Shown piece after piece: positions 2,088 through 64,000 of a stretch of DNA of 64,000 bases (the first letter of the stretch is position 1; each line of letters starts with the position of its first letter). A program made the position numbers and the translations under genes. The DNA is taken from contig OX459104.1 of NCBI GenBank assembly GCA_949775045.1, positions 18,363,819 through 18,427,818 on the forward strand, in the 5' to 3' direction. The DNA is from Metridium senile (taxonomy: Eukaryota > Cnidaria > Anthozoa > Actiniaria > Metridiidae). The notes beneath the pieces are model-generated. The model did not search any database. It worked only from the letters and a program-made list of their open reading frames with translations, and was not told the origin of the DNA.

Positions 2088-2130
<43 letters not shown>

Positions 2131-5100: not shown

Positions 5101-5208
5101 TCATCATCATCACTATAATTATCATCATCGTCATCATCATCATCGTCATCATCATCGTCATCATTATCATCATCATCGTCATCATCATTATCATCATCAT
5201 CGTCATCG

Positions 5209-5252
<44 letters not shown>

Positions 5253-8200: not shown

Positions 8201-8388
8201 TTCGACATCCAAATCTTTAACTAGCGGCCCTAGTTTCTTGATGTCTTCCGCTGACCATTTAGACAGATCGGTTCCTAGTTTAGTTGACTTGACCTTGTCT
8301 ATCAGTGCGCGTGCGTGAGGGTAGTTGAACTTGGCTGCCTTGGATATTACACTAATGGACTTGGAGATCTATAATAGATGTGGACATC

Positions 8389-8468
<80 letters not shown>

Positions 8469-24800: not shown

Positions 24801-27582
24801 TTATAGTCTCCCATGCAGTCGTGATAGTACGTCTCCCTAGCGCGTGTCATTTAACGCTGTAGAAAGAGCAAATTATGCTCAAAAATGTATGGAATAAGTT
24901 TAATTTATAATGACACGCAATTATTTTTCAATTTTGTTATTGTGGTATAATGGTTTGTAACCAAAGGTTCATCTACCCCCATCAACGGTCACAAGTGGGC
25001 AGTGATTGAACAACGGCTTGCTCTATCAAAACATCATTAACCTATATATACAGCCACAGACAAAAAAACAAAACAAAAAAAACCCGAACAGTTGGTATAT
25101 AATTGACCATATATAGCCGTCCTTAAGAACATTGACGGCTTTGATATATACTTTAGTATAAATCATTATCACCAGCCATTAAATTAGAGCGCTAATTAAC
25201 TGATTATATCCATCAAACAAAATCAAATTGTTAGTGTACTGTAATAGTATTATTTAGTGACTATTAGTTATTATAAAAGACAAGTGAAGTTGTAATGAGG
25301 TATTGTTTCCTTTTGTATTTGATGTTTCTGTTTGAGTGATCGATACTGACAAATCGTGTTGAAATAAAGTCAATGTATGTCATATGTAAAACTACTGCAA
25401 TTTCTCCTGACATCCATATCTTAAGCTGAACTTTTGCACTTATACTAATTTTGAGGTGCTCTTTCTATTTCTGACGTGACCTGCATTGATATATTCATTT
25501 ATCTATTAATTATATCAAATAATGAAATTTGTAACACCGTAACAAACGTGTTTGTTTACTCCGACGAAGGTCTAAAACTCGAAACGTCAGTAAGTTAAGT
25601 CAACATTTTTTACGGTGTTACAAATTTCATTCTATTATTTATCGTTTATATCAAACACCGACGCAGCCTATACTAGTTTACTCGCTAGTTTCCAATTATT
25701 TGATCTATATCTATTGATCTATCCATTGATCTATCCATTGATCTATCCATTGATCTATATCCATTGATCTATCTATTGATCTATCCATTGATCTATCCAT
25801 TGATCTATCTATCCATTGATCTATCCATTGATCTATCTATCCATTGATCTATCTATCCATTGATCTATCCATTGATCTATCCATTGATCTATCCATTGAT
25901 CTATCTATCCATTGATCTATCTATCCATTGATCCATTGATTGTTCCTTGTAGCCAGTGCAGCACTAGTCGACCTTGAGGAGCTGTTCCAGTCAGGACGTA
26001 GCCCTGCCAGCGATTCTAGATGGAAGTACCTCGGCGCTCACAAGGACAGTTCCCAGGACAAACTGCCGAGATATCTAATGAACGAACTGAAGACGTATGT
26101 CGACCAATTGGAATCAGAAGACCCTATTTTGGATCTCCATGATCATGATAGTGAGGTCGCTAAGGAGTTGAAAAGGGAAATCGAGTCCATTAGGAAAGCT
26201 ATGCTTGACGAAGAACTACAGAGCAACGATCCCGTAAAGCTTAAACCTGGACAGAGTCATCCAATAGGTAAGTTATGGCGTCGAGAGATAGAATAAATGT
26301 ACCACGGGTATGTGCTGCTGGTTAGGGAAAGGTCTTGATCTGTTCAAATGTGCATTTACCCCAGTTTATTTTTAAAGAATTTAGAACTTGAACAAAAGAT
26401 GATAGGTCTTGTTTATCTTGGTTACGGTACAGTGGAACCCCGTTAATCCGGCCACCGAAGGGACAGCCCAAAGTGGCCGTATTAACGGGTTGGCCGCATT
26501 TTAAAGCAGGTAGATATTATAGAAAATTTATGGACATGCATTTCGTCGGGACCTAAAAAACTGGCCGCAATAACGGGGTGGCCGTATTATGCGGCTGGCC
26601 GTAAGGCGGGGTTCCACTGTACTTATTTATTTTATGAAACATTTCAAACACGGCGTCACGCAACACGGCTAACAATACAACACTTGTGGCGTGACAAGGA
26701 AGAGAACAACAAATCAAACAAGTTCACTCACACGGTGGTCCTGAGAAAAATCCCTTGCGGCAATAATATATACCTATTGACGCAATCAAAGACACAGTCC
26801 ACACTCTGAAGCCTGCAAAGGATGTCGGTATTTCTTCTCTTGTTATCAAATTATTCATAGCATATTTTGGCCGGTTGTACGTGTTTGTGTTATATGACCA
26901 TAACAAGTTGTTGCAGTGGTAGATGATGAAACGAATATTTCTTGAAAAACGTGTAATAAATAACAAATCAAGTCAATATAACCGACATCCTTTGCAGACT
27001 TTAGAGTGTGGACTGTAGGTTCGGCTGTGACGTCAACGATTTTTGAAATAGGTGTAATCAAACAAACTCAATTCACATGTACATAACCCATGCCCGAGCC
27101 GGTAGCTGTATCATATAAGACACCCATATATCGATGAGAATTATAGAGAACGATTAATATAGCCTCAAATAGGCGTCATTTTGGGTTTTGGGGAGAAATC
27201 GGGTTTTGAGTTTCCTGTGTCTAGGCCCAATGCTTCTCGCGGGTTTCACGACAACACAGGAACCCCAAATCCGATTTTCCCCAACACACAAAAGAACGCC
27301 TGTATTGCAGGCTACGATTATTATTACCACCACTCCCCCCTACGGCATGCAAGACACCCATATATCGATGAGAGAACGATTGATATTAATTGAAGTAAAT
27401 GTTCTCATTGTATGACGTGTGCAGATTGTGGAGCGTTTGGTTGCTGTTCTGACAACTCGAAGGCAGACGAAGAAGGAGAAGAAGGCTGTGCAAGTACGTA
27501 TCTTATGATAATGATGATGATGATGATTATGGTGATGATGATGATGGTGATGATGATGATAATAGTGATGATATGATGATGG

Positions 27583-27625
<43 letters not shown>

Positions 27626-29335
27626 AATTGTGATGATAATAATGATGATGATAATAATAATGATGACGACAATAATGATGATGATGATCGATGATGGTGA
27701 TAGGTATAATAATATTAATGATGATAATATCCACTAATACTCCATGTTCTTCTATAGGGAAATTATGTGAGGATATCTTCAAAAAAACGTGTGGTTCGTT
27801 CTCTTTTGTATCGAAGAAAAAAATGTGTCGTATGGCTTTCATCAGCAGGAAATGTCCGTATACTTGCAACACTTGCAGTAAGTGCCTTTTAGGGGGGGGG
27901 GGGGGGGATTATATGTCCACGTAATACAATAATAGCTTGAGAGGAGAGGGGAGGGGAGGGGAGGGGAGGGGATACATTTCAGCTTCTCTATATCTAATAT
28001 GATGTGTGATAAAATAGTTCTACAATGTTTTCTCGTGACATATAGTGAATATCCCACTCGTCACTTGTATTTTCTTTGCATACACACTCGCCTAATTGCT
28101 CTTGTGTATACTACAAATAAAATATATTCAATCTCCAATAGTTTGACAGGCTCTTGTGAACATTAACAACCAAGTATTTGAATGTTAACCCTTGAATGTT
28201 AACAACCATGTACAACCATGTATTTAAACATTAACAACCATGTATTTAAACATTAACAACCATGTATTTAAACATTAACAACCATGCATTTAAACATTAA
28301 CAACCATGTATTTAAACATTAACAACCATGTATTTAAACATTAACAACCATGCATTTAAACATTAACAACCATGTATTTAAACATTAACAACCATGTATT
28401 TAAACATTAACAACCATGCATTTAAACATTAACAACCATGTATTTAAACATTAACAACCATGTATTTGAACATTATCAACCATGTATTTGAACATTATCA
28501 ACCATGTATTTGAACATTATCAACCATGTATTTGAACATTATCAACCATGTATTTGAACATTAACAACCATGTATTTAAACATTAACAACCATGTATTTA
28601 AACATTAACAACCATGTATTTAAACATTATCAACCATGTATTTAAACATTATCAACCATGTATTTAAATATTAACATCCAAATTTGTATTTGAATATGTT
28701 CTGCAGAGGATATGGCTGCACCTCTAACCGTCTGTAAAACTCAGTACCCGTCTCAGTACTGTTGCTGGGATGGTAGAATTGGCACAGGACCTAACGGACA
28801 AGGCTGTAAACGTAAGCGAGCATGTTATTGTGTTTATATGATAATATGGTTTATACGGTATTATATACAATATGAGCGGCTGTTCTGTATAGGATATACA
28901 ACGGCGATCACGAGTCGAAGACGAGGGACTATATATCTCAAATAGATCGGACACGAATATTGTATAGTACTTATGAAAGTCAGACATTATTTCTTTCATA
29001 TTTTACTAAAAAATTGTCAAGATAAAAGTAAATCTGGTCGAGAAAATTCAAGATAAAACTTATGCAAATCACTGACGATCATATATCTAAGATACAACCT
29101 CGGCGTCACGGAAGTAAATTATTTTGTCAATTTCTCATTAATTATTCATGAATTTTATAAGATAAACATTTTGACTGTTTGCTGTTGTTATTTGTTAGCA
29201 TGCCTAGACCTCTACAGACCAGTATGTAATATATACAAGAAGGTTGGTGGAGGTTGCCAATCAAACTCCTGGCGAATCAGAACTTTTATGAACAAAAACT
29301 GCCCACACACCTGTGGATACTGCTCAAAAAAATAG
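21898..29335 (+). CDS. Secreted protein with two ShK modules and two CC/GC cysteine modules, 264 aa, complete
   Basis: Exons 21898-21946, 25953-26267, 27425-27493, 27758-27877, 28707-28811 and 29199-29335 join in phase 1 throughout and give 264 residues plus TAG. Residues 1-20 form a signal peptide (MKLFLFSVCALLFALNASAA). Residues 21-121 are acidic, Cys-free and helix-prone, resembling a propeptide. Module 1 (122-145) has GCC-x-D...GC; ShK 1 has cysteines 148, 156, 168, 177, 181, 184; module 2 (about 185-219) has CCWDG, GPNG and GC; ShK 2 has cysteines 221, 229, 239, 254, 258, 261. The CC..D..GP..GC modules resemble cassettes in papilin-like extracellular proteins (inference). Each module is one symmetric phase 1-1 exon. 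ShK folds occur in ion-channel-blocking peptides but also in many enzymes and matrix proteins; the long multidomain layout does not by itself indicate a venom component. The stop codon directly abuts a GTAAG donor, so the 3' UTR is probably spliced. Confidence 0.85.
22725..23250. repeat. Minisatellite of about 76 bp with a decayed hammerhead-like motif
   Basis: Seven to eight units containing TTACTGACGTTTAGGACG and GTCGGAGTAAAAATGGTAAC. The minus strand reads TTTACT-CCGACAA-AGGA..TCCT-AAACGTC-AGTAA, matching the dispersed family described at 25520-25695. It lies in intron 1 of the ShK gene. Confidence 0.85.
23260..24469. other. Intron 1 of the ShK gene: no gene recognised
   Basis: Contains a short direct repeat (TCATAAGCATCTATTTTA, about 23510-23580) and purine/pyrimidine-rich blocks near 24240-24340. 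A 102-codon open frame at 23705-24013 has no splice context or recognisable motif and is not annotated. Confidence 0.5.
24470..24620 (+). mobile_element. tRNA-derived SINE
   Basis: An A-box-like TTAGCTCAGTGGATAGAGC and a B-box-like GGTCTGAATTCAAACC are followed by a non-tRNA tail (GAGAAGAAGTTGCTGCCTTT). The stems are degraded, so this is a SINE and not a working tRNA gene. This tail style recalls anthozoan SINEs. Confidence 0.75.
24908..25144. repeat. Second copy of the 19003-19233 repeat
   Basis: Same block order as the first copy with scattered substitutions and short A-tract expansions. Confidence 0.85.
25520..25695 (+). repeat. Hammerhead-like dispersed repeat, copy in ShK intron 1
   Basis: Contains TTTACT-CCGACGA-A-stem-GAAAC-GTC-AGTAAG at 25555-25595 and then GTTACAAATTTCATTCTATT, ACACCGACGCAGCC and ACTCGCTAGTTTCC. 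Relatives: 30240-30665, 39726-39868, 49165-49330, 50575-50860, 60908-61052 and the arrays at 22725 and 32625. Confidence 0.85.
25696..25942. repeat. CTATCCATTGAT minisatellite abutting the exon 2 acceptor
   Basis: 10- to 14-bp units of ATCTATCCATTG fill the end of intron 1 up to about 10 bp before the acceptor TTGTAG of exon 2 of the ShK gene. Confidence 0.95.
26428..26621. mobile_element. pogo/Tc1-like MITE, 190 bp with TA target duplication
   Basis: TA-CAGTGGAACCCCG at the left and CGGGGTTCCACTG-TA at the right. The CAGTGGAACCCC terminus is typical of pogo-superfamily MITEs. Confidence 0.85.
26770..27057. mobile_element. TIR element, about 290 bp
   Basis: Left ACAGTCCACACTCTGAAGCC and GCAAAGGATGTCGGT are inverted on the right as ACCGACATCCTTTGC and AGAGTGTGGACTGT. 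Confidence 0.85.
27117..27385. repeat. Direct repeat flanking a small MITE
   Basis: AGACACCCATATATCGATGA occurs at about 27117 and 27350. Between them lies a palindrome with AAATCGGGTTTTG / CCAAATCCGATTTTCC. Upstream of ShK-gene exon 3. Confidence 0.75.
27505..27720. repeat. GAT microsatellite
   Basis: Triplet array filling the intron between exons 3 and 4 of the ShK gene. Confidence 0.95.
27892..27976. repeat. Poly-G tract and GGGGA repeat
   Basis: About 16 consecutive G, then GAGGGGAGGGGAGGGG units; potential G-quadruplex DNA just downstream of ShK exon 4. Confidence 0.85.
28180..28685. repeat. 22-bp minisatellite, over 20 copies
   Basis: Unit ACCATGTATTTAAACATTAA-CA with point variants (GCATTT, TTTGAACATTATC). 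Runs of identical variants suggest recent local amplification. Ends just before ShK exon 5. Confidence 0.95.
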
Positions 29336-30239: not shown

Positions 30240-30665
30240 ACAATGAAATTTGTAGGACCGTATACGAAAAGTGTTGACTTAACTTTACTAAAAGTAAACG
30301 GCGGTGTTACAAATTTCATTCTATTACCTATCGTTTAAATCAAGAACCGACGCAGCCTACATTAGTTTACTCGCTAGGCTAGTTTCTATTTCTATTTCAA
30401 ACAGTCAGTTACAAATGTCATTCTATTACCTATCGTTTATATCAAACAAAGACGCAGCCTATACTAGTTTACTCGCTAGTTTCTATTTTTTACGGTGTTA
30501 CAAATTCCATTCTATTACCTATCGTTTATATCAAACACCGACGCAGCCTATACTAGTTTACTCGCTAGTTTCTATTTCTTACGGTGTTACAAATTTCATT
30601 CTATTGCCTATCGTTTATATCAAACACCGACGCAGCCTATACTAGTTTACTCGCTAGTTTATATT
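30240..30665. repeat. Hammerhead-like family: partial tandem copies
   Basis: Four repeats of GTTACAAATTTCATTCTATT...ACGCAGCCTATACTAGTTTACTCGCTAG split below 20 bases: landmarks CGACGCAGCCTA and TTTACTCGCTAGTTTC. The ribozyme-like core is lost in this cluster. Confidence 0.85.
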
Positions 30666-33514: not shown

Positions 33515-36500
33515 ATGATATCTCTACTCGTGTTGTGTCTGGCCGTGACGGCCTATGCTGGATCAGGTACGTTAAGGGGAAAATTGGGAGGGAGGAGAGA
33601 GAGAGGGAAGAGTAATATTGTATAGTCGTCGGGAATGTTCAAAACGTCCCCTACAAAATACTGAGAGTCCGGAAAAAGGGCGTGGTTAGTGCGATTGAAC
33701 CCCCTTAAAGATACCAAACAACTCCCCCAACTAAGACCCTGTCTAATCGATATAGAAATTAAAGTTAATTTTTGTCTTACTATTTTTCCTGTTTTAGTTG
33801 ACTTCATCTGTGACTTCGCTAATAGCAAATGCGGAATGGTGCAGAGGACTGACGATGACTTTGACTGGTCAATGGGATGGGGTGAGTGCTTCATAGTTAG
33901 CTACTATCGACTAGAGCGGTCAAATGCCCGTCTTGTTTTTTTTCCCATGTGATTTGGCCAATCAATTTACTCTAAAATGTGGTACAAAGAAAAAACCCAG
34001 AATATTCAATAGTCAAAAATAGAGCGAAGCGCCATCACAGCGCTCCCGGCAGTCTCAGCGATCATAGCGTTTGTAGTTGGAACCAGGCTTAACAATTGAA
34101 CGACAAACAATAGCTGTATATATTAGTTCCCAGTGTATTAGTTGTTTTAAAGCCTTGCCTTCCAAAGAAGCGTTCTAGTGGAGGGTTTTGGACAATGGGG
34201 TTCCTGTGTTATCTTTTAGTTTACTGCGGATACGTACATGCAAACACAGCGGTCAAACGACTACGCATGCGTGGCAAAATTTCACAGCGGTAATTTTGCC
34301 ATTGTGAACATTAGGATTTGCGGATTTGAAGTCGATTTATAAGATATAAGATTGAAGTTTCGTGTACACAACTTTGTTATATTGTAAAGCTACCATGAGT
34401 CTATACTTTTGGATTTTTGTTTAATTTTTTTTTTTTTGTATTTTGAGAAAAAAGCGAAGAAAGTCGTACACTCCATCGTTTTTGATAGAATCCGTACGAA
34501 TGTCAGATTTGTGTGCTGGATCATTTTACTTTTTTTTCGCGCATGCGTGGTCGTTTGACCGCTGTGTTATCCACGTCTTCAATTCAAGTTACCTTGGTAG
34601 TATTTTTATCTTATTGCAGAGGATATGTACATTGACAACTACTACGCTTTTGCCGGTGATAAAGCTAAGCTACAGACTCCTTACAAATACTCGTTTGACA
34701 ATGGCAACAAGTGTCTTAGCTTCACATACCATCTAGATGGACCCAATGTTGGCTCGCTTAACGTCTATGTAGCTGGTCAAAAAGTCTGGTCAAAAGTGGG
34801 CGACCAGGGCCCTGCCTGGCATAAGACTTTGTTTAGAATCCCTGTCACACAAGGCTCACACAAGGTACTTACACGAGCGTTACGATCACTTGTGAAAAGA
34901 GCAAAATCGCATAACATATAATATACTCCAAAATTACAAGTGTCATCCTGAGTTTTGGTGTGCGGTATTTCTATAATTAAAACCGCAAAAGATAGCAATT
35001 ATATTTTCAAGTTTTATTCTATGATACGATAGATTAACATATTTCTCTGCTGTGACATTACTTTAAAGATCGTTCTTTCTTGTGAAAATTAGAATTGTAC
35101 GAACACAATATATTCCAAAATTACAAGGGTCATCCTGAGTTTTGGTGCGGTATTTTCACAATTAAAACCGCAGAAAAAGAACAGTTTTCAAGTTCTATTC
35201 TGTGATACGCTATTTTTACACATATTCCTCTAATCATTTCATTCATTCATTCAATCTTCCATCTTTTCATCCATTTATGTACTTACTTACCTCCCCTATT
35301 ATCTGATGTCTTGTGTTCCAGGTAATCTTTGAAGCAGTAGTCGGCAGCGGTTCGTACACTGACCTAGCGCTCGATGACGTCATGCTGGAAACCTGTCAAT
35401 CAACAGTCAGTAAGTCCTGTCACATTATCATAATATATGCATTATAAACTAGCATTAATGTTATAAAATATTTTCATTTCAAAATGTTTAATTTTTTTAA
35501 ATATTTTTTGAATTGTTTTTTTTCTTTTTATCTTTTAGCACCAGCTCCTCCAACACAAGGTCCTACTCCACCACCCCCTACACAAGCCCCAACCCCACCA
35601 CCCCCACCACCCCCTACAGCAACACAAGCCCCACCTCCTCCTGTCACCCAGGCACCTACCCAACCCCCATCAGGTAAGACCTATGCCCATGTGATGTAAG
35701 TTTTGATTAATATGGTGCATGTGTACTCATTGTTGAGAAAGACTGTTAGTGTTTGTTCTGGTGTTTGAATAGAATGAACCAAGGTGTAAGTCATGATTGT
35801 AATAAACCTGATCATTATGAATGGTCTGTCTGTCCAGGTTCTTGTAGTTTATATTCACTATGGTGTATTTTACTGGCTAGTTTCCATATATGTCATATAT
35901 TGTTGATATTATAAATGGTCTGTCTGTCCAGGTTCTTGTAGTTTATATTCACTATGGTCTATTTTACTGGCTAGTTTCCATATATGTCATATATTGTTGA
36001 TATTATGAATGGTCTGTCTGTCCAGGTTCTTGAAGTATATATTCACTATGGTGTATTTAACTGGCTAGTTTCCATATATGTCATATATTGTTGATATTAT
36101 AAATGGTCTGTCTGTCCAGGTTCTTGTAGTTTATATTCACTATGGTCTATTTTACTCGCTAGTTTCCATATATGTCATATATTGTTGATATTATGAATGG
36201 TCTGTCTGTCCAGGTTCGTGTGGTGTTCGTCCCAGTACCAGGATAGTAGGTGGTACAGATGCTAACCATGGTGACTGGCCCTGGCAGGCTCTTCTACAGT
36301 ACGCCCCAACTGGTGCCCAGTTCTGTGGTGGTGCACTCGTCCATCCACAGTGGGTGGTTACCGCGTCTCATTGTATGGACAGTGTAGATGCAGCTAATGT
36401 TATTGTCAGGTCAGAAAACTATAATAATGATGACGATGATATAATATAATATGATGATGATAATAATGATGACGATGATATAATATAATATGATGATGAT

Positions 36501-36888
36501 AATAATGATGACGATGATATAATATAATATGATGATTATAATAATGATTATGATGATTTTTCTTATATGATTATGATGGTGATATGATGATATAGTATAA
36601 TCATGATGATGATGATGAAAATTATATAATGATGATAATAATGATAATGATGATTATAATAGCGATTATGATGATAATGTTGATGAAAATGATTGTGATG
36701 ATGATATTGCTTATATGATGATGATGGTAATGATACATATATAATTATGATAATGATGATGATGATAATAATGATAATGATAATGATATGATGATCATTG
36801 ATCATAATGCTGATAATGATAATGATGATTATAATAGTGATGATGATAATGTTGATGATAATGATAATGATAGTATTGATGATAATGT

Positions 36889-36922
<34 letters not shown>

Positions 36923-38446
36923 AATGATAATGATAATGATAATTCTGTTTTAGAATGGGAGCCCATAAGCGAACCAAAACAGTTGGCACTGAACAAGACA
37001 TCAAAGTCAGTAAGATTATTATGCACAAATCTTATCAGAGTCCTAAACAGTACAGCAACGATATCGCTCTTTTGAAACTCGCTCAACCTGCTAAACTAGA
37101 CAGTCAAGTACGTATAACGTTAGAAGAACAGACAACCATCAGTCTCGACGGTTTCTCTTGACCACTTGTCTGTCTGTCTGCCTCAGTGCTTGTTTGTTTG
37201 TCTGTTTGTGTGTCGGCCGTTTGACGTTTGAATCTGTAGTTGTTTATTAATCTCGAATGCGTTACGTTTACAATTGGCGGTTATACGGTTTTAACGGTTC
37301 CTTATAATAAACGAGTATAAATCTGTTCAGTAAAAGTACAAGAAAAAGTAAAAGAAAATATAGATAAGTACTTACAAGACAAGTTGTTTCCGTTGAACGT
37401 TTCTACAGACTAACTAATTATTCAAAAACAGTAAGTTAAGTTAACGTAAAATACAAAAGACGCGAATACTAATGAAAAAACAGAGCGTAAAAGAATGTCT
37501 AACAAAAACAACAAAAAACAGAACAAAAGAAGAAATAGCACTAACAGTTTGTCTGTTTGTCTGTTTGTCTGTTTGTCTGTTTGTCTGTTTGTCTGTTTGT
37601 CTGTTTGTCTGTTTGTCTGTTTGTCTGTTTGTCTGTTTGTTTGTTGGTCTGTTGGTCTGTTGGTCTGTTTGTTTGTTTGTCTGTTTGTCTGTTTGTCTGT
37701 TTGTCTGTTTGTCTGTTTGTCTGTTTGTCTGTTTGTCTGTTTGTCTGTTTGTCTGTTTGTCTGTTTGTCTGTTTGTCTGTTTGTCTGTTTGTCTGTTTGT
37801 CTGTTTGTTTGTTTGTCTGTTTGTCTGTTTGTCTGTTTGTCTGTTTGTTTGTTTGTCTGTTGGTCTGTTGGTCTGTTTGTTTGTTTGTCTGTTTGTCTGT
37901 TTGTCTGTTTGTCTGTTTGTCTGTTTGTCTGTTTGTCTGTTTGTCTGTTTGTCTTGCATGTGCAGTAAATGATTTTATATTTATATTTTATATTTAAATG
38001 ATTTTATCTTACTAGCTGCAAGGCGTTTTTTCAATAAACATATCTATCTATCTATCTAGATACACAAACCTTGTATGTCTACCCGAATCTATCCCAGATG
38101 TTTCTGCGAGCTCAAATTGCTGGATTACAGGTTGGGGTACCCTTAGTTCAGGGGGGTTACAACCAGAGACTCTACAACAGGCATCAGTACCAATCGTGCA
38201 TCAGGATACGTGTAAAGCCTCCTATCCCAACCAGATCGACCCTAGTATGATATGTGCTGGTCTGAAACAAGGTGGAATCGATGCTTGTCAAGGTACGCAG
38301 ATATATGATGATGATGATCGGTGATAACGATGATGACAATATGATGATGATATAGTAATACTAGCTAGTCATTCTCATGATGAAAATCACACATCTTTTT
38401 CACAACTACTATAATCATCCTCCTCCTCATCATTATCATCATCATT

Positions 38447-38490
<44 letters not shown>

Positions 38491-38747
38491 TTATATTTTT
38501 CATCACGTCACCGACCTCTCCATCACCTGATCAGATCGCCATCGTGGTCTGATATATAATCTATCTATTTCATATACCTGCTCTAGGTGATAGTGGTGGT
38601 CCTATGGTGTGTGAGACCGCTGGTCGGTTCTATCTCCATGGTGCTACTAGCTGGGGTTATGGCTGTGCTGCTCCTGACAAGTATGGTGTCTATGCACGTG
38701 TCAAGTACTTACACACATGGATAAAAACACAGATGACAAACAACTGA
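33515..38747 (+). CDS. MAM domain plus trypsin-like serine protease, paralogue 1 (452 aa)
   Basis: Coding exons: 33515-33566, 33798-33881, 34620-34864, 35322-35409, 35539-35673, 36214-36409, 36954-37118, 38060-38292, 38587-38747. Residues 1-17 are a signal peptide; 18-156 a MAM domain (start [16 protein letters not shown]); 157-201 a Pro/Thr/Gln linker; then a protease with activation site R211-IVGG. The triad is His254 (TASHC), Asp303 (SNDIALLKL) and Ser402 (GDSGGP). Asp396, six before the serine, equals chymotrypsin Asp189 and predicts cleavage after Lys/Arg. Probably an extracellular or digestive/gland protease, with MAM as adhesion module. Oddities: exon 2 is 48 nt shorter than in paralogue 2, removing 16 MAM residues; the exon 7 donor used by paralogue 2 is altered here, and the only in-frame GT I find is AAC/GTTAGA after 37118, so that junction is less certain than the rest. 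Confidence 0.82.
34243..34568. mobile_element. TIR element, CAGCGGTCAAACGAC family, copy 2
   Basis: ACACAGCGGTCAAACGACTA left and GTCGTTTGACCGCTGTGT right; inserted in intron 2 of MAM-trypsin paralogue 1, 51 bp before exon 3. Confidence 0.88.
35800..36213. repeat. 94-bp minisatellite carrying splice acceptors; last unit is the real exon 6 acceptor
   Basis: TCTGTCTGTCCAGGTTC recurs with CCAG at 35834, 35928, 36022, 36116 and 36210, exactly 94 bp apart. The fifth is the acceptor of exon 6 (starts 36214). The copied exon starts run into stop codons within the unit. Confidence 0.95.
36410..36945. repeat. GAT microsatellite
   Basis: Whole intron between exons 6 and 7 of paralogue 1 is GAT/AAT-rich, with a 41-bp sub-repeat near 36420-36540. 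Confidence 0.92.
37186..37455. other. Intron 7 of paralogue 1, left part
   Basis: Unique sequence with a short GTTTGTCTG stretch and no recognisable element. Confidence 0.5.
37546..37955. repeat. GTCTGTTT octanucleotide microsatellite
   Basis: About 410 bp of TGTCTGTT with two symmetric islands of TGTTGGTC, pointing to an internal duplication. Confidence 0.95.
38305..38500. repeat. GAT/CAT microsatellites
   Basis: Two triplet arrays of opposite polarity in the last intron of paralogue 1. Confidence 0.9.
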
Positions 38748-38945
38748 TTGACAAATAATTGACAAATGATATATTAATAGATGAATGACAACTGATTGAC
38801 AATTGATTGCAGTTGATAGATGATTGGCAACTGATTGACAATTGATTGCAGTGAAAAGATGATTGACAACGCATGAGATAAAAAGATGATTGACAACAGC
38901 TGATTGCACTAGATAGATAGATGTTTGACAACTAAAGAATTGGTT
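38748..38945. repeat. 3' UTR minisatellite of paralogue 1
   Basis: Units of GATTGACAACTGATTGCAGT, degenerate; homologous to the cleaner array at 46839-47100. Confidence 0.85.
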
Positions 38946-39725: not shown

Positions 39726-39868
39726 CAGCGAGTAAACTATAGTATAGGCTGCGTCGGTGTTTGATATAAACGATAGGTAATAGGTGTCTGGTAAAAAAGG
39801 TAAATAGGTAAAAAAATGTTGACTTAACTTTACTGACGTTTCGAGCTTTAGCCCTTCGTCGGAGTAAA
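39726..39868 (-). repeat. Hammerhead-like dispersed repeat, best-preserved minus-strand copy
   Basis: Minus strand at 39829-39867 reads TTTACT, CCGACGA, A, GGGCTAAAGCTC, GAAAC, GTC, AGTAAA. Flanks GGCTGCGTCGGTGTTTG match the family. Confidence 0.88.
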
Positions 39869-39869
39869 A

Positions 39870-40430
39870 AGACAGAATATTATATAAATCAAATTATCCT
39901 AAAGACTACGATACTTGCATACATACTGCTATTAAGAAATGCACGATATAGATAACCCCGCCACATGATGTTGAAGGTCTGATCCACGCCACACCCTATT
40001 AAAACGTGCTTAAAAACTTTTAAAGATTTACTTAATCAGGCAGTAAACGAAGGGAAATATGCTGCGGGTATAAGCAATATGATTGTTGTGCATTCTGCAT
40101 GGGTATAACTAATCAAACATCGTCAGTTTTGGTCATTTTGCATGAGCTATAGTCCATCAAAACTAGTCATTGTTGGTCCTTTTCAATTGGCCAGTCGTGA
40201 GTTGCTCCTATTATATAACTGATATCATTAACGAAGGCACTCAGAAGATATCTACCAAGTATTTACCCAGTAGGCTGACGAGACAACACGACAATAAAAG
40301 ACAAGATTGTTCAGCTTTGCGTTAGTTTGATCTAGTAATGGAGCGGTGATCGTTTTAACTATCATTACTGTATTAACAATACCAATATTTAGATGATACT
40401 GCTGATGACGTCATACAGGTGCATAACTAC
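39870..40430. other. Intergenic DNA between the two protease genes
   Basis: Unique sequence without exon pattern; the last part holds the presumed promoter of paralogue 2. Confidence 0.5.
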
Positions 40431-40489: not shown

Positions 40490-43400
40490 ATGGTCATGTT
40501 GCTTGTTTGTCTGCTTACCTTGGTCTCGTCTGTCTATAGTGCTACAGGTTTGTGTATTCAACGTTTAGTAGCATGATTAATCAATAGGCATCGAGAACCT
40601 AGAACGGCATTTCACTAGAACATGGATTAATTGTGTTTGCGTATCTGAAGATAGCGTAGATCTAAGACCGTTTCTGCAATAAGAATATTAAACTAGCAGT
40701 TTAAACAGAGTTAAACGTAGACTATATACAACACATAACCTTTGTTATAGACAATAGACCCTGCGCTGTAGTCCGTTATTTTCAGTGTTTCAGCAATAAG
40801 GATAAGATCGATGCAATAATAATATAACTTGACTGATACCAAATGAGGTCTATGTATATACATCAAGGCAGCAAAGTCTACTGTTGCCATGATTATATTT
40901 AAAACAAATAGATTAACTAAGAAAGGCTTAAAACTAAAATACGTACTTTTAAATTTATTTCATACACTAAGTAATTCTTAAATTCATTTCCAATTGAGTT
41001 ATTTGATATCCTATTTTAATGGGAATAAATCAACCTCACGTGATCAATTCAAATTCTGTCTTGTATTTGTAGTGTTCAACTGTAACCTTAACTTTGACGA
41101 CTGTAACCTGGTACAACGCACTGATGATGATTTTGATTGGACGAAGCACTACGGTATGACTCCAACTGACTACACTGGACCATGGACTGACACAGACGGG
41201 TGGGGTAAGTAAGATTGGACAGACACACACGGGTGGAGTAAGTAAGATTGGACAGACACAGGGGGTGGGGTAAGTAAGATTGGATAGATACAGGGGGCGG
41301 GGTAAGTAAAATTGGATAGATACAGGGGGTGGGGTAAGTAAGATTGGACAGACACATGGGTGGGGTAAGTAAGACTGTAAGTAGAGACGGTATGGGGTAG
41401 TGTAAGTAGAGACGCTGAGGGGGTACTGTAAGTAGAGACGCTGAGGGGGGTAGTGTAATTAAGTAGAGATAGCATAGGTATTGTGAGTATAGACGTAGAA
41501 TGGTGAAGTTTGTTTGTTGTAGGTGATTACATGTATACTGATGCACGAGGTAAGACAGCGGGAAGTAAAGCTAAACTAGACACGCCATCATTCTCGTTTA
41601 GTGGTGGTGGTAAATGTCTTAGTTTTTACTATCATATGCATGGGTACAACATGGGTACCCTCGCCGTGTATGTGGGCAGCCAATTGGTATGGACAAGAAC
41701 TGGTGATCAAGGAGACCGCTGGATACTAGCATCGCTAGCTCTTCCTGTATCAAGTGGATCTCACAAGGTGACAATCGATACAACATGTACATATTGATAC
41801 TATCATTATCATCATTATAACGCATCGAGGTCTTTAGATGCGTCTAAAAACAAATATTATTATTATCATCATCATCATCACCACCATCATCGTCATCACC
41901 ACAATCACCATCATTACCACGACCACCACCATCATCATCATCATCATCATCGTCATCATCATCGTCATCATCATCATCATTACTATCATCGCCATCATTA
42001 CCACCACCACCACCATCTTCCTCATCATCAACATCAAAATAATGCAATATAGTCATAGCATCATTGTTATCATTATTATAACCAACAGCATAACAATCAT
42101 CATCATTAACAGAGAGATGTTTTTAAAAACATATATCAGTTATTGATGTGATAATTCAACGCTGTACTGTATGTTATTAGATTATGTTTGAGGGGACTAT
42201 CGGTAACGGCGTGCTATCTGACATGGCTATCGATGACATCATTCTACAGGACTGTTCAGGTACTATTATACATTACCCCAAATAGACCGTGTAACAAAAA
42301 TCCAGGAAAACCGTCTCTCAACTGAGAGTTTCAGAAAGGTCCTGGACTTAATGTAAAGCTTTTCAAGTCTTAGACAAGACACTTGACTTCAGTCATAGTC
42401 GGCTTTGTCGACCAAGATTCATACGTTGAAACCAGGGTGTTATTGGTTTTTAACATTTGACTGCATGCTGCGATTGTATAGCATCACATCCTTATTTTAA
42501 TAAGGATGTGACATTACATCTCCTATTGCAAGTTCACTGTCTCCGTTTACTTACGCCATCAGGATCAGTGTTCAAACTACAAATAAATTACAGAATCTTA
42601 AATAGTACAAAGTGCGTATAAATGTGTTAAATAAACAACTTATTAAGATAATGAAAGTTTGGCATTTGTCCATTGAACGAAATAAACCTTTGAGGTTGAA
42701 AGCCTTGTCCTATTTATATAATTATTAGCTTCGCTGCTTATTCAACGACCATTATAAGAATTGATTAAAGGCAGATTTGTTGTATTGTAGTACCTGCTAC
42801 GCAAGGTCCACCCCCTCCACCCCCCACAGCAACCCCTAGTCAGCCAGCTGTTACCACTCTTCCTCCACCACCGCCAACACAGGCTACCCAAGCACCGCCA
42901 ACAGGTGAGTTCAAACTTATAATGTTTGCTGATAAATGCACAACATTTTTGTTGACAATTGATGTTTCGTTGTTGTTGTTTGTTGTTGTTACTGTTACTC
43001 GTGAGTTTTTGCAATATTGATTTGATTTTCTCAACGTTTGCTTGTCAAAATGTTTGCAAAAACAACCAATGCTCGCCACGTAGCTTTTAATTTTCTCTCA
43101 GTCGGTTATTGCATTCTGTCAGTGTTTTGGTCAATTCAGAATTCTAGATCTCCTACTATTTTGTTCGATAAATTACCATGATTAACAATTACCTTATAAA
43201 GAAGATTTTTCAAATTGTTTAAAAATTAATATCGCTGGTAAGAAATGCTAGTACCAACGAACAGGATACCGTGGACCGGGCAGATGGTGAAAAACTGGAC
43301 CGCGCGCTAGCCAATCACAGCGCGCGATTACTAGGATACCGGACCGAAAAAAATTAAGAACATTTACTCTTCGTATTGTTCGACTCTTGGCCACTTTTGC

Positions 43401-46400
43401 TATCGAATAGCTAGTCCCCTTCACAGTTCCCTAAAAAAATATAGTTGAGCAAAATTGAATGGTAGCCGGGCCTTTGCATTGAAGCGGGACGAACGTTGAG
43501 CTTGAATCATGATAGAAACACGTCAATAATTGTCCCGCAAGGTGTTAAAAGGTCTCTATCATTGCAACTCGCTCAACGTTCGTCTCGCTTCGATGCAAAG
43601 GCCCGGCTACTTTTCAAGATGGCGCAGGGAACTGTGAAGGGGACTACTTCATCAAAACTAACGTAACAGTTGGAAATGAAAAACTATCAGACTCAACTAA
43701 CCTTAAACTGTGAATGGGACTATTGTTTCTGTGTTCTTTTGTCCTCGTTTTTCTCATCTTTACTTCTCCCATTCCACAAGTGCTTGCCTAACCGTTCTTT
43801 CATTTTACAGTACTTTTGCTGAACTATCTTTTTGATAATAGCCAATAGAATAGAATTCATAACACGTATGATGCTCATCTTATGATTAATGGTCTGTCTG
43901 TCCAGGTTCGTGTAGTTTATATTAACTATGGTCTAGTTTACTCGCTAGTTTCCATATATTTGTATGTCATATATTGTTTTGATATTGTTATAATCAATTC
44001 TAGATCTGTTCGCTCTTTTGTCCGCCATTATTATGATAAATTTGACACCGCAAAGCATGCGCGATGATGACCAGAAAAGACCGCTGTAACAAAATACCGA
44101 CTCAACGAAATGGCTCTAATTTTTTGAATGTGTGTTCAGGTTCGTGTGGTGTTCGTCCCAGTACCAGGATAGTAGGTGGTACTGATGCTAACCATGGTGA
44201 CTGGCCCTGGCAGGCTCTTCTACGTTACGCCTCCAGTGGTTCCCAGTTCTGTGGCGGTGCACTCGTCCATCCACAGTGGGTGGTTACCGCGTCTCACTGC
44301 CTTGCTAATTTAGCTGCTTCACAAGTACATGTCAGGTGACTATGATAATATATAACGCACCTTCTGATTGGCTAAAGTCGTACACACATGTCAGGTGACT
44401 ATGATAATATATAACGCACATTCTGATTGGCTAAGGTGACTATGATATAAGATATAACGCACCTTCTGATTGGCTAAGGTGACTATGAAAATATATAACG
44501 CACCTTCTGATTGGCTAAAGTCGAACATGTCAGGTGACTATGATAATACATAACGAACCTTCTGATTGGCTAAAGTCGAACATGTCAGGTGACTATGATA
44601 ATACATAACGAACCTTCTGATTGGCTAAAGTCGAACATGTCAGGTGACTATGATAATACATAACGCACCTTCTGATTGGCTAGAGTCGTACATGTCAGGT
44701 GACTATGATAATATATAACGCACCTTCTGATTGGCTAAAGTCGTACTTGTCAGATGACTATGATAATATATAACGCACCTTCTGATTGGCTAAGGTGACT
44801 ATGATAATATATAACGCACCTTCTGATTGGCTAGAGTCGTACATGTCAGGTGACTGTAATAATATATAACGCACCTTCTGATTGGCTAAGGTGACTATGA
44901 TAATATATAACGCACCTTCTGATTGGAAGTATTTAAAGCATTTCAAAACTCTTTTCGATTGGTTTAAAGTTACATAATAACAGCTAAATATGTAAAGTGC
45001 CTTTTGATTGGCCTAAAATACAAAATAAAGTCTACCGCGAAGAAAGTATGTATTGTGTTATAACGCGCACTCTGATTGGCCAAACATTTACTGACGTATA
45101 TTTCACGAAAGTAACGAGACTGCTGGTGCGATTCTGATGTTATTTTTGATAATTAGGATGGGTGCACATAAACGGACGAATGCAGTTGGAACAGAGCAAG
45201 ATTTTAAAGTCAGTCAAATAATCATGCACTCCTCGTACCAGTCCCCCAGGTCCTACAGTAACGACATCGCGCTTGTCAAACTGGAACGACCCGCTATACT
45301 TGACAGGTAATACCTTAGGGGAGGTAAGAACGTAACTTAGGGGGGAGGTGACGGGATGTCTTACAGTATTCAAGCTGGAACGACCCACTATACTTGGCAG
45401 GTAATACCTTAGGGGAGGTAAGAACGTAACTTAGAGGGGAGGTGACGGGATGTCTTACAGTATTCAAGCTGGAACGACCCGCTATACTTGACAGGTAATA
45501 CCTTAGGGGAGGTAAGAACGTAACTTAGGGGGGAGGTGACGGGATGTCTTACAGTATTCAAGCTGGAACGACCCGCTATACTTGACAGGTAATACCTTAG
45601 GGGAGGTAAGAACGTAACTTAGGGGGGAGGTAACGGGATGTCTTATACATATATATGGTCTGCAATTGCTACGTGGTAAGGGGGAAAGGGGGAGAAATTC
45701 ATGACATGACAAATTAGAAGACTAGATATATATGTCCGTTTGTGTCTGTCTGTCTTTTTGTCTGTTTTTAGATACACAAACCTTGTTTGTCTACCCGAAT
45801 CTATCCCAGATGTCTCTGCGGGCTCCAGTTGTTGGATAACAGGGTGGGGTACCCTTAGTTCAGGGGGGTCACAACCAGAGACTCTACAACAGGCATCAGT
45901 ACCCATCGTGCATCAGGATACGTGTAAAGCTTCCTATCCCAACCAGATCGACCCTAGTATGATATGTGCTGGTCTGAAACAAGGTGGAATCGATGCTTGT
46001 CAAGGTACGCAGACAGATGATGATGATGATGATGATCGGTGATAATAATGATGATGATGATCGGTGATGATGATAATATGATGATGCATGGTGGTGGTGG
46101 TGATTATGATGGTGACAATATGATGTTGATGATCGGTGATCGGTGATGATGATGATGACAATATGATGATGCATGGTGGTGGTGGTGATGATGATGATGA
46201 TGACAATATGATGGTGGTGGTGGTGGTGGTCGTGATGATGATGATGATGATGATGATGATGACAATATGATGATGGTGGTGATGGTGATGATGGTGATGA
46301 TGGTGGTGATGATGGTGATGATGGTGATGGTGACAATCTGATGATGGTGGTGGTAATGGTGGTACTTGATGTAGATGATGATGATAATTATGATGCGATT

Positions 46401-46838
46401 GTCATCCCCATTATCACACTCATTATGATCGTCATTACTATCATGACCATTAATATCAATACCATCATCAGCATTTTTATAACGTCCTTATCACTATTAC
46501 CATCATCATCTTCCTCACGATATTAAATCATAATTTCTTATTTTGGGGATTGTAGCTGTGATTCTCATTTTACCTTAATTTGTCTGTTTCTTGATCATTC
46601 TGGCGAGCAGCCATTGGTCAATTGGGATTCTTATTTGACTGTCACAATCCTAAAGTTATTTCATATACCTGCTCTAGGTGATAGTGGTGGTCCTATGGTG
46701 TGTGAGACCGCTGGTCGGTTCTATCTCCATGGTGCTACTAGCTGGGGTTATGGCTGTGCTGCTCCTGACAAGTATGGTGTCTATGCACGTGTCAAGTACT
46801 TACACACATGGATAAAAACACAGATGACAAACAACTGA
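40490..46838 (+). CDS. MAM domain plus trypsin-like serine protease, paralogue 2 (455 aa)
   Basis: Coding exons: 40490-40547, 41073-41204, 41523-41767, 42181-42259, 42791-42904, 44140-44335, 45157-45306, 45772-46004, 46678-46838, all phases closing. Signal peptide 1-19 ([19 protein letters not shown]), MAM domain about 20-171 with a full-length second exon (contains [15 protein letters not shown]), Pro/Thr linker 172-209, then the protease: activation at RIVGG, His262 (TASHC), Asp311 ([10 protein letters not shown]), Ser405 (GDSGGP), specificity Asp399. Exon order, sizes and phases mirror paralogue 1, so the pair arose by tandem duplication. The last exon is identical in DNA to that of paralogue 1 whereas the MAM exons differ strongly. 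Three of its introns (after exons 2, 6 and 7) begin with minisatellites built from copies of the exon end and donor site. Confidence 0.87.
41205..41460. repeat. 32-bp minisatellite made of the exon 2 end and splice donor
   Basis: The real donor GTAAGTAAGATTGG at 41205 is followed by copies at 41238, 41270, 41302, 41334 and 41365, each preceded by a GACACA..GGGTGGG copy of the exon end. Confidence 0.93.
41800..42125. repeat. CAT/CAC microsatellite
   Basis: Triplet array filling intron 3 of paralogue 2. Confidence 0.92.
42260..42790. other. Intron 4 of paralogue 2: nothing recognised
   Basis: A short imperfect palindrome around CACATCCTTATTTTAATAAG at 42486-42505 is the only structure noticed. 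Confidence 0.5.
43412..43711. mobile_element. Inverted-repeat element with a one-sided tail shared with gene 1
   Basis: Ends AGTCCCCTTCACAGTTCCCT and GGGAACTGTGAAGGGGACT; arms contain GGGACGAACGTTGAGCTT. The tail 43647-43711 matches 7889-7900 plus 8125-8177 of gene 1 with very few mismatches. Confidence 0.88.
43886..43990. repeat. Single decoy-acceptor unit in paralogue 2
   Basis: ATGGTCTGTCTGTCCAGGTT followed by CGTGTAGTTTATATT matches the 94-bp unit of paralogue 1, so the seed unit predates the gene duplication or was exchanged. Confidence 0.85.
44336..44935. repeat. Minisatellite made of the exon 6 end and donor (about 55-60 bp units)
   Basis: The real junction ATGTCAG/GTGACTATG at 44335 is copied many times (next at 44395), joined to TATAACGCACCTTCTGATTG. 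Several sub-unit variants lack the ATGTCAG part. Confidence 0.93.
45307..45640. repeat. 94-bp minisatellite made of the exon 7 end and donor
   Basis: GACAG/GTAATACC at 45307 (real) recurs at 45401, 45495 and 45589. Each unit copies 26 nt of exon end (CTGGAACGACCCGCTATACT...) preceded by a CTTACAG acceptor-like site. Confidence 0.95.
46013..46515. repeat. GAT/GGT and CAT microsatellites
   Basis: Triplet arrays of the last intron of paralogue 2, homologous in position to those of paralogue 1. Confidence 0.9.
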
Positions 46839-47100
46839 TTGACAACTGATTGACAACTGATTGACAACTGATTAATGCAGCAGATAGATAGATGATTGAC
46901 AACTGATTGACAAATGATTCCAGTAGATAGATAGATGATTGACAACTGATTGACAACTGATTCCAGTAGATAGATAGATGATTGACAACTGATTGACAAC
47001 TGATTCCAGTAGATAGATAGATGATTGACAACTGATTGACAACTGATTCCAGTAGATAGATAGATGATTGACAACTGATTGACAAATGATTCCGGTAGAT
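46839..47100. repeat. 3' UTR minisatellite of paralogue 2
   Basis: Unit of about 43 bp with GATTGACAACTGATTGACAA and CCAGTAGATAGATAGAT, five to six copies, directly after the stop codon. Confidence 0.93.
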
Positions 47101-47193
47101 AGTAAATCAAATTGATCACCGGATTTCGATTCGGTTTGTGATTGACTACTAATTGTAATATTATGCATGTCAATTTTTAAAATTGATTGGAAG

Positions 47194-50574: not shown

Positions 50575-50860
50575 ATAGAAACTATAGCGAGTAAAATAGG
50601 CTTCGTTGTTGTTTGACATAAACGATAGGTAATAGAATGAAATGTCTAACTGACTGTTTAAAATAGAGATAGAAACTATCGAGTAAACTAGTATAGGCTT
50701 CGTCGTTGTTTGATGTAAACGATAGGTAATAGAATGAAATTTGTAACTGACTGTTTAAAATAGAAATAGAAACTATCGAGTTACTAGTATAGGCTGCGTC
50801 GGTGTTTGATATAAACGATAGGTAATATCATGAAATGTGTAACACCATAAAAATGTGAAG
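50575..50860 (-). repeat. Hammerhead-like family, three tandem partial copies
   Basis: GAAACTATCGAGTAAACTAG and GATAGGTAATAGAATGAAAT recur three times; ribozyme-like core absent. Confidence 0.85.
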
Positions 50861-51658
50861 CTTTTAAGCTTAAAAAAACCTTCAATTTATAACTGCATGC
50901 GTCATACAAGCCAAAGTTGAAATTTTTTACGGTGCCATATGCAAATTCTATTTTATAGACCATCAATGATAAAAAAGTTTTTTAGTATAAATGTTTAAAT
51001 GAACAATTCAAGCTCTGCGTCATTGGGGACAAAATATTTTGACAAACAAGAAATAGTTATTAATTACATGTTATTGAGTTGAAGTGAATTGAAGCCATGT
51101 TTGAACATGATGATATTGATGCCATGTTAAACTCCAATGATTTTACACTGCGCAAACTCAATACAAAAACAACTTTCTTCTATAATAAAGCTAATTCCCA
51201 CATGACAAAGTCAGGGTTAATAATATGTATATTATTTGTATAAACATGTGAAGTATTTTCGCTGTTTTTCTGCATTTTTGAGTGTTTTTTTTTTTACAAG
51301 GTGAAAATAAATTACGCAGGTGGTGGGGGTGAGTAGGCGGTGCGCATGGTATTATGGGTAGGTTGTATGATCTTGGTCGGTATTGCAGATTTCGTGTTCA
51401 TTTGTAAGGCGACTGGTCGTGAGAATCTCGGCAAAACCGACATAAATAGGCACAGTTTAGATACAAAATGGACTGCTTTGGATTCTAGAAAGATTAATCT
51501 ACTAAACTGCACTTCGACAATGTGTTTCTGTCCACCGAGGAGCTGTATTTTGACGGTTTTACGGACGGGACTGTGTTGTGTTGGTCTTGTCATGTAAGCA
51601 AGTCTTCATCGTAAAGTCTGGTTGCTCGTAGGCTTCGCTGTCTACTGCAAGCTTCACC
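50861..51658. other. Upstream region and probable 5' UTR of liprin-alpha
   Basis: No TATA box or repeat recognised. Sequence becomes less AT-rich after 51300, compatible with a 5' UTR or promoter region. No second gene seen. Confidence 0.45.
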
Positions 51659-63757
<12,099 letters not shown>

Positions 63758-63800
63758 GTATACGATGACAATCTTGCTGTCAATGTTGTTAAAAAATAAA

Positions 63801-63985
63801 ATTACTGCGGTTTTCGTCTTTCTGCGAACTCAGACATTCTAACGTCTAGTCGTGAAATACGTTTTTGGCTGCTGCTAATTACTCGGCACCTGTTATGTCT
63901 TTGATTGACGGCAGACAAAAACGTATTTCACAGCTAACCGTTGGAATGTCTGAGTTTGCAGAAAGTCAAAAAGAAATGCAGTAAT
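63801..63985. mobile_element. MITE, about 185 bp
   Basis: ATTACTGC + TTTCTGCGAACTCAGACATT at the left and AATGTCTGAGTTTGCAGAAA + GCAGTAAT at the right. Lies just after the last liprin exon in the window. Confidence 0.88.
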
Positions 63986-64000
63986 AAATCAATATTTGAG

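What the first reader, a model, noticed from the sequence alone, without database searches (positions are those of the whole stretch)
41195..45640. Minisatellites seeded on splice donors in MAM-trypsin paralogue 2
After exons 2, 6 and 7, the authentic exon-end/donor junction is itself the first unit of a tandem array: donors at 41205, 44336 and 45307 are copied at 32-bp, about 55-60-bp and exactly 94-bp spacing. Three independent arrays in one gene that each include a real 5' splice site is more than expected for random minisatellites. They create rows of decoy donors, and the exon 7 array also copies 26 nt of exon preceded by an acceptor-like CTTACAG, forming potential pseudo-exons. Possible causes: replication slippage at junctions, or selection or drift on splicing variation.
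Basis: seen in the sequence. Interest (0 to 1): 0.82.

Follow-up and report, generated by a model that had tools for sequence, protein, structure and literature searches.

The report
Repeats grown from splice sites
In a digestive-enzyme gene that looks like a sea anemone's, three stretches of repeated DNA copy the points where the message is cut and joined; the same kind of structure is known in lancelets and in one human gene, and it is a natural test of how cells choose the right cut site.

Summary
The window carries two tandem MAM-trypsin genes of a hexacoral, probably near sea anemones. In paralogue 2 the donors of exons 2, 6 and 7 (41205, 44336, 45307) each lie in the first unit of a tandem array, with about 22, 11 and 31 nt of coding exon in the unit. 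A fourth, weaker case: in paralogue 1 a 94-bp array (35809-36221) ends in the exon 6 acceptor. Random placement of the window's 36 minisatellites reaches four such overlaps in 4 of 3000 trials; stricter counts give 30-40 of 3000, one looser setting is not significant, and the test is post hoc. These match 'mirages', tandem duplications of exon-intron boundaries described in amphioxus, and resemble the human ABCA7 VNTR, whose first bases are a real donor. So this is a new member of a known kind, in a group for which my searches listed no report. Best explanation: tandem duplication across a junction leaves an intact exon-side copy, which exon definition selects, so the array is nearly neutral. 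All 20 decoy-donor isoforms tested stop directly after the exon, so protein variety is an unlikely use. No RNA data or genome-wide count were available.

The parts
40490..46839 (+). MAM-trypsin paralogue 2, nine exons, 455 aa
   Evidence: Spliced ORF with GT-AG borders; PF00629 and PF00089; hexacoral homologues
41073..41204 (+). Exon 2, whose last 22 nt are in unit 1 of array A
41183..41374 (+). Array A, about 32-bp units, gene-model donor at 41205, five downstream copies
41376..41500 (+). Degenerate continuation of array A (about 26-bp units with GTAAGT-like sites); end set by eye
44140..44335 (+). Exon 6, whose last 11 nt are matched in array B units
44326..44926 (+). Array B, 12 units of 55-59 or 41-43 bp, gene-model donor at 44336
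   Evidence: TRF reports 44393-44926
45157..45306 (+). Exon 7, whose last 31 nt are in unit 1 of array C
45276..45645 (+). Array C, 94-bp units, 3.9 copies, gene-model donor at 45307
35809..36221 (+). Array D in paralogue 1, 94-bp units, 4.4 copies; its last unit holds the exon 6 acceptor (first exon base 36214)
   Evidence: exon part 8-9 of 11 nt in the four decoys
43886..43990 (+). Single relic of the array D unit in paralogue 2 intron 5, with decoy acceptor and 10 of 11 nt of the exon start at 43906
33515..38748 (+). MAM-trypsin paralogue 1, comparison gene without junction-spanning arrays at its exon 2, 6 and 7 donors

Best explanation
These are 'mirage'-type minisatellites: chance tandem duplications whose unit happened to cross an exon-intron border, later amplified. 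Shown here: each unit set carries the splice site plus a piece of neighbouring exon, the exon-side unit is the one that gives the open reading frame, and the extra units lie on the intron side (downstream of donors, upstream of the acceptor in array D). Inferred: such a duplication is nearly neutral because the original exon edge stays intact next to the exon and exon definition chooses the competing site nearest across the exon, so the extra copies leave with the intron. Decoy use would bring an immediate stop codon, so errors would be lost as truncated or decayed messages, keeping the array silent rather than useful.
For: Junction-spanning units at three donors and one acceptor. Coding frame intact across paralogue 2, with TASHC, DIAL and GDSGG present (their role as the catalytic triad is recalled). 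Decoy donors match the consensus CAG|GTAAGT (recalled) at 6-7 of 9 positions against 7 of 9 for the three true ones, so this crude measure of site strength cannot pick the true site. Introns beside exons 2, 6 and 7 are 318-1235 nt, above the 250 nt given for exon definition; in five minigenes with two identical strong donors and 365-nt introns the upstream one was used exclusively (PMC9225289). All 20 decoy-donor isoforms tested end directly after the exon. Paralogue 1 has no junction-spanning array at the same three donors, so the arrays arose after the genes parted or were lost there. In both paralogues a further array starts at or a few nt before the stop codon, which fits tolerance at another edge of constrained sequence.
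Against: No RNA was available, so use of the first donor is inferred from frame and homology. Random placement gives about 0.48 overlaps against 4 seen, so tolerance alone may not explain the number. Exclusion of the edge unit from homogenisation, reported in amphioxus, is mixed here: the functional unit is further from the copies in A and D but not in B and C. In ABCA7 retention of one unit is seen in about 2% of transcripts, so silence is not complete there. In PMC9225289, before filtering for equal strength, the downstream donor was favoured in about 60% of human events, weakened donors in longer exons led to exon skipping, and the cross-exon preference is weaker for acceptors.
Confidence: 0.72

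Rival explanations
1. Splice junctions are preferred birthplaces of minisatellites, for instance because donor-side sequence or co-transcriptional RNA-DNA hybrids there promote slippage.
For: 4 of 36 minisatellites span junctions of two genes against 0.48 expected (4 of 3000 trials reach 4); 3 of 5 inside paralogue 2 against 0.59 (94 of 10000); 4 of 7 inside the two gene bodies against 0.81 (P 0.0036; one wholly coding repeat dropped). Several amphioxus genes show the same kind of structure (PMC3087553, PMC3902484, passages).
Against: Post hoc choice of gene and few events. With up to 200 nt of exon overlap allowed the excess is not significant (361 of 3000); with a 10-nt minimum array D drops out (3 seen, 30 of 3000); with TRF's own start for B, 3 are seen (40 of 3000). 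Five minisatellites in the liprin-alpha-like region span none of its exons as far as a rough scan could map them, which is weak evidence. An acceptor array (D) argues against a donor-only cause.
Confidence: 0.15
2. The arrays are kept because decoy donors tune expression: a share of transcripts is diverted to stop-containing forms that decay.
For: All 20 decoy isoforms tested give immediate stops. In human ABCA7 retention of exactly one unit occurs, adds a stop, and stop-containing transcripts rise with cycloheximide (PMC5954066).
Against: In ABCA7 one-unit retention does not change with array length. Donor windows in the copies are not clearly the most conserved part of the unit (rank 5 of 24, 14 of 42, 39 of 86, with 8 of 12 B units used). 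The paralogue does not share the arrays.
Confidence: 0.07
3. The arrays produce protein variation through decoy donors or pseudo-exons.
For: Decoy donors, acceptor-like CTTACAG and exon copies are present.
Against: All 20 decoy-donor isoforms and all 3 array C pseudo-exon isoforms tested are cut short.
Confidence: 0.03
4. Assembly artefact: units multiplied or collapsed by the assembler.
For: Arrays are hard to assemble; no reads were available.
Against: Units differ from each other and the arrays end in unique sequence. Copy number may be wrong, but a junction-spanning unit would remain.
Confidence: 0.03

Closest known systems
Amphioxus 'mirages' (BflGb6, BflGb9, Adh3 and others; passages of PMC3087553 and of the lancelet PGBD5 paper PMC3902484 seen; the original Adh paper not held)
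   Same: Minisatellite-like tandem duplication of an exon-intron border, at donors and at acceptors, many units with AG/GT signals, ordinary splicing reported to be kept
   Different: Described there in cephalochordates with RT-PCR support; here a hexacoral, three donors in one gene plus an acceptor in its paralogue, without RNA data. Main units here are 31-94 bp against 10-160 bp there
Human ABCA7 intron 18 VNTR (PMC5954066, passages and one results section seen)
   Same: 25-bp array whose first two bases are the real exon 18 donor; a donor one unit downstream is used at a low level (about 2%), giving a frameshift and stop
   Different: The unit is described as starting at the GT, so no copied exon piece is stated; hundreds of units in some alleles, polymorphic, disease-linked
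Intron gain from tandem arrays or AGGT duplication (Zhuo 2007 recalled, its title met only as a search phrase; PMC4974935 search listing only; PMC10809524 and PMC2812944 passages)
   Same: Tandem duplication of splice-site-bearing sequence
   Different: There duplication helps make a new intron; here the intron already existed and grew at its edge

Membership tests
Mirage (tandem duplication of an exon-intron border) | Repeat unit spans an exon-intron border and includes exon sequence | tested here: met
   About 22, 11, 31 nt of exon at A, B, C; weaker at acceptor D (11 nt, 8-9 matched). Borders come from the gene model, not from RNA
Mirage (tandem duplication of an exon-intron border) | Units head to tail, on the intron side of the border | tested here: met
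Mirage (tandem duplication of an exon-intron border) | Many units keep AG/GT-type splice signals | tested here: met
   GT kept in 6 of 6 full units of A, 11 of 12 of B, 4 of 4 of C
Mirage (tandem duplication of an exon-intron border) | Copies homogenised, edge unit left out | tested here: inconclusive
   Functional unit further from the copies in A and D, not in B (8 of 12 units used) and C
Mirage (tandem duplication of an exon-intron border) | Regular splicing of the mRNA is kept | not testable with these tools
   No RNA; open 455-aa frame agrees
Mirage (tandem duplication of an exon-intron border) | Copy number differs between alleles | not testable with these tools
   One haplotype only
Intron gained from a tandem array | The intron is absent from relatives and both borders come from repeats | tested here: not met
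   Paralogue 1 is also interrupted after exons 2, 6 and 7 (its exon 7 border is broken), and the paralogue 2 acceptors lie outside arrays A, B and C

The most novel reading that the evidence does not exclude
Exon-intron borders, donors above all, are preferred seeds of minisatellites in this animal's genome, so that introns grow from their own splice sites (intron 2 is about 93% donor array) and the spliceosome must pick one true site among up to a dozen near-identical ones by position alone.
Probability: 0.15. Interest if true: 0.72.

Novelty: new member of a known kind. Interest (0 to 1): 0.42.

Why it matters
If first-donor use is confirmed by RNA, this gene is a natural test of splice-site choice: six, twelve and four similar donors in a row, where sequence strength can hardly decide and position must. 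It would also take 'mirages', described in lancelets in the papers I could see, to a cnidarian, and support the view that introns can lengthen cheaply by duplication across their own edges. It also warns gene annotators that rows of good donors near an exon need not be alternative sites.

Tried and rejected
Tested and dropped: pseudo-exons in array C (34 nt, out of frame, poor acceptor); amphioxus as the source (the top-listed named relatives are mostly sea anemones and stony corals); selection on donor motifs (no clear signal); edge exclusion as a general rule (mixed). A mobile-element origin from phages or plasmids was not pursued (array C alone against phages, no match).

Literature searches bearing on a cnidarian report. 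No listed title or abstract start was one, but lists were capped (20 of 25, 12 of 659, 12 of 146). One search returned no paper; one search returned two, on lancelet PGBD5 and an abalone kinase. Searches were for intron gain and donor choice. The library lacks most subscription papers. Earthworm metallothionein intron repeats (PMC12783039, passages) were looked at and not seen to span a junction.

Counting choices: 58 merged repeat loci, 36 kept as minisatellites (period 10 or more, not dominated by short units), 22 dropped as microsatellites. Array B was given its first unit by hand; one search repeats the main test with TRF's own start. In the gene-body test one wholly coding repeat (35553-35605) was dropped, leaving 7 of 8. 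The liprin-alpha-like exons were mapped only by a composition scan; that scan also scored two of the five arrays themselves (59697-59925, 62280-62566) as candidates, which I set aside as repeat by-products, so 'none spans' is weak there.
Full report
What is there. The window holds two MAM-trypsin genes in tandem. Paralogue 2 (40490-46839) has nine exons with GT-AG borders and an open frame of 455 residues; Pfam finds MAM and trypsin domains. The top-listed named relatives are hexacoral proteins, among them Actinostola, Exaiptasia, Porites, Pocillopora and Acropora, so the animal is a hexacoral, most likely near sea anemones. Paralogue 1 (33515-38748) has the same nine-exon layout, with one broken border.

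The arrays. Array A starts with the last 22 nt of exon 2 and the donor at 41205, and repeats at 31-33 bp five more times. Shorter, degenerate units follow to about 41500, so about 93% of the 318-nt intron 2 is built of copies of its own donor region (the end was set by eye). Array B starts with the last 11 nt of exon 6 and the donor at 44336 and has 12 units at 41-59 bp; four of the 11 later units have lost the exon part but kept a donor, and one has AT in place of GT. TRF alone begins B one unit late. Array C starts with the last 31 nt of exon 7 and the donor at 45307 and repeats at exactly 94 bp three more times; each unit also holds a GAG|GTAAGA that matches the consensus at 7 of 9 positions, like the true donor. 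The ends of exons 6 and 7 align with protein in 8 of 8 homologues, so there the coding exon is the likely source; the end of exon 2 aligns in only 3 of 8 (4 gapped, 1 not covering it), so for A the direction is less certain.

A fourth case. In paralogue 1 a 94-bp array (35809-36221) ends with the exon 6 acceptor; four decoy acceptors lie 94, 188, 282 and 376 nt upstream. The exon piece is short, 11 nt, matched at 9, 9, 8 and 9 positions, so this case is weaker than the donors. One relic of the same unit sits in paralogue 2 at 43886-43990 with 10 of 11 positions of the exon start. All four cases follow one rule: the functional unit is at the exon side. That rule is forced by geometry and is not evidence of seeding.

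Chance. TRF rows merge into 58 loci, of which 36 count as minisatellites. Four span a junction of the two genes by 8-40 nt. Random placement with at most 40 nt of exon overlap gives a mean of 0.48 and reaches 4 in 4 of 3000 trials; with 1-40 nt, 6 of 3000; with a 10-nt minimum, 3 are left and 30 of 3000 reach it; for paralogue 2 junctions alone (3 seen) 6 of 3000; for arrays of 100 bp or more 0 of 3000; inside paralogue 2 alone 3 of 5 arrays, 94 of 10000, or 3 of 4 with the continuation of A merged, 53 of 10000. With TRF's own start for B, 3 are seen and 40 of 3000 reach it. Inside both gene bodies 4 of 7 against a mean of 0.81, P 0.0036. If up to 200 nt of exon overlap is allowed the mean rises to 1.9 and 361 of 3000 reach 4, which is not significant. 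The gene was chosen because of its arrays, so these numbers flatter the claim. In the liprin-alpha-like gene (about 51.6-64 kb) five minisatellites span none of the exons that a rough scan suggests; that scan gives no exact borders and is weak evidence.

What the decoys would do. Decoy donors match the consensus CAG|GTAAGT (recalled) at 6 or 7 of 9 positions against 7 for the three true ones. Extending exon 2, 6 or 7 to any of the 20 decoys tested (6, 11 and 3, the AT unit included) ends the protein after 65, 275 or 325 residues, that is, in the first codons of the intron. The three array C pseudo-exons are 34 nt, out of frame, behind a 41% pyrimidine stretch, and end the protein after 334 or 364 residues. 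Decoy acceptors in paralogue 1 also bring stops, after 203 or 226 residues. A role in protein variety is therefore unlikely; a role in lowering expression is possible but untested.

How the true site could be chosen. For competing human donors of near-equal strength with introns above 250 nt on both sides the upstream donor is preferred, and in five minigenes with identical strong donors and 365-nt introns it was used exclusively; without the strength filter the downstream donor was favoured in about 60% of events, and weakened donors led to exon skipping in the larger constructs (PMC9225289: abstract, first part of the results, acceptor section and passages seen). The introns beside exons 2, 6 and 7 are 525/318, 1235/821 and 821/465 nt. 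Exon definition thus predicts the observed reading frame with no special device. That cnidarian splicing follows the human rule is an assumption.

Known kind. In amphioxus, minisatellite-like tandem duplications of exon-intron borders are called mirages; both ends of introns are affected, many units hold AG/GT signals, and RT-PCR suggested ordinary splicing (PMC3087553, passages). Lancelet PGBD5 shows similar repeats (PMC3902484, passage). In humans the ABCA7 VNTR begins with the exon 18 donor, and retention of one unit is seen in about 2% of transcripts (PMC5954066). The arrays here meet the structural features of a mirage; splicing and allele variation could not be tested. They are not gained introns, because the paralogue is interrupted in the same places.

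Verdict. The most likely account is tolerance: tandem duplication across an exon edge harms little because the exon-side copy stays intact and exon definition selects it. Whether junctions are also preferred birthplaces is open, and a genome-wide count would settle it.

Noticed in passing
36954-37120: Paralogue 1 exon 7 has no canonical donor at the codon-correct end; the nearest GT a few bases on would shift the frame. Pseudogene, polymorphism or sequence error cannot be told apart.
   Followed up: partly
38745-38870 and 46831-47102: In both paralogues a tandem array (11-, 39- or 43-bp units) begins at or 5 nt before the stop codon and runs into the 3' UTR: an array at another edge of coding sequence.
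   Followed up: partly
36427-36940: Paralogue 1 intron 6 carries a long ATG-type microsatellite starting 17 nt after the donor, where paralogue 2 has array B.
   Followed up: no
25700-25933: A 28-bp array ends about 10-20 bp before the probable acceptor of a coding exon, next to it but not spanning it.
   Followed up: no
51600-64000: A liprin-alpha-like gene (name recalled from the protein pieces; Pfam found no domain in the two pieces tried).
   Followed up: partly
1300-12100, minus strand: Several open frames that resemble the stereocilin/mesothelin repeat family by eye (recalled; not searched).
   Followed up: no
29195-29332: A ShK domain (E 1.9e-07).
   Followed up: no
30408-30665 and 50596-50843; 22802-23249 and 39832-39870: Minisatellites whose units look alike at distant places, perhaps parts of dispersed elements (by eye).
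   Followed up: no
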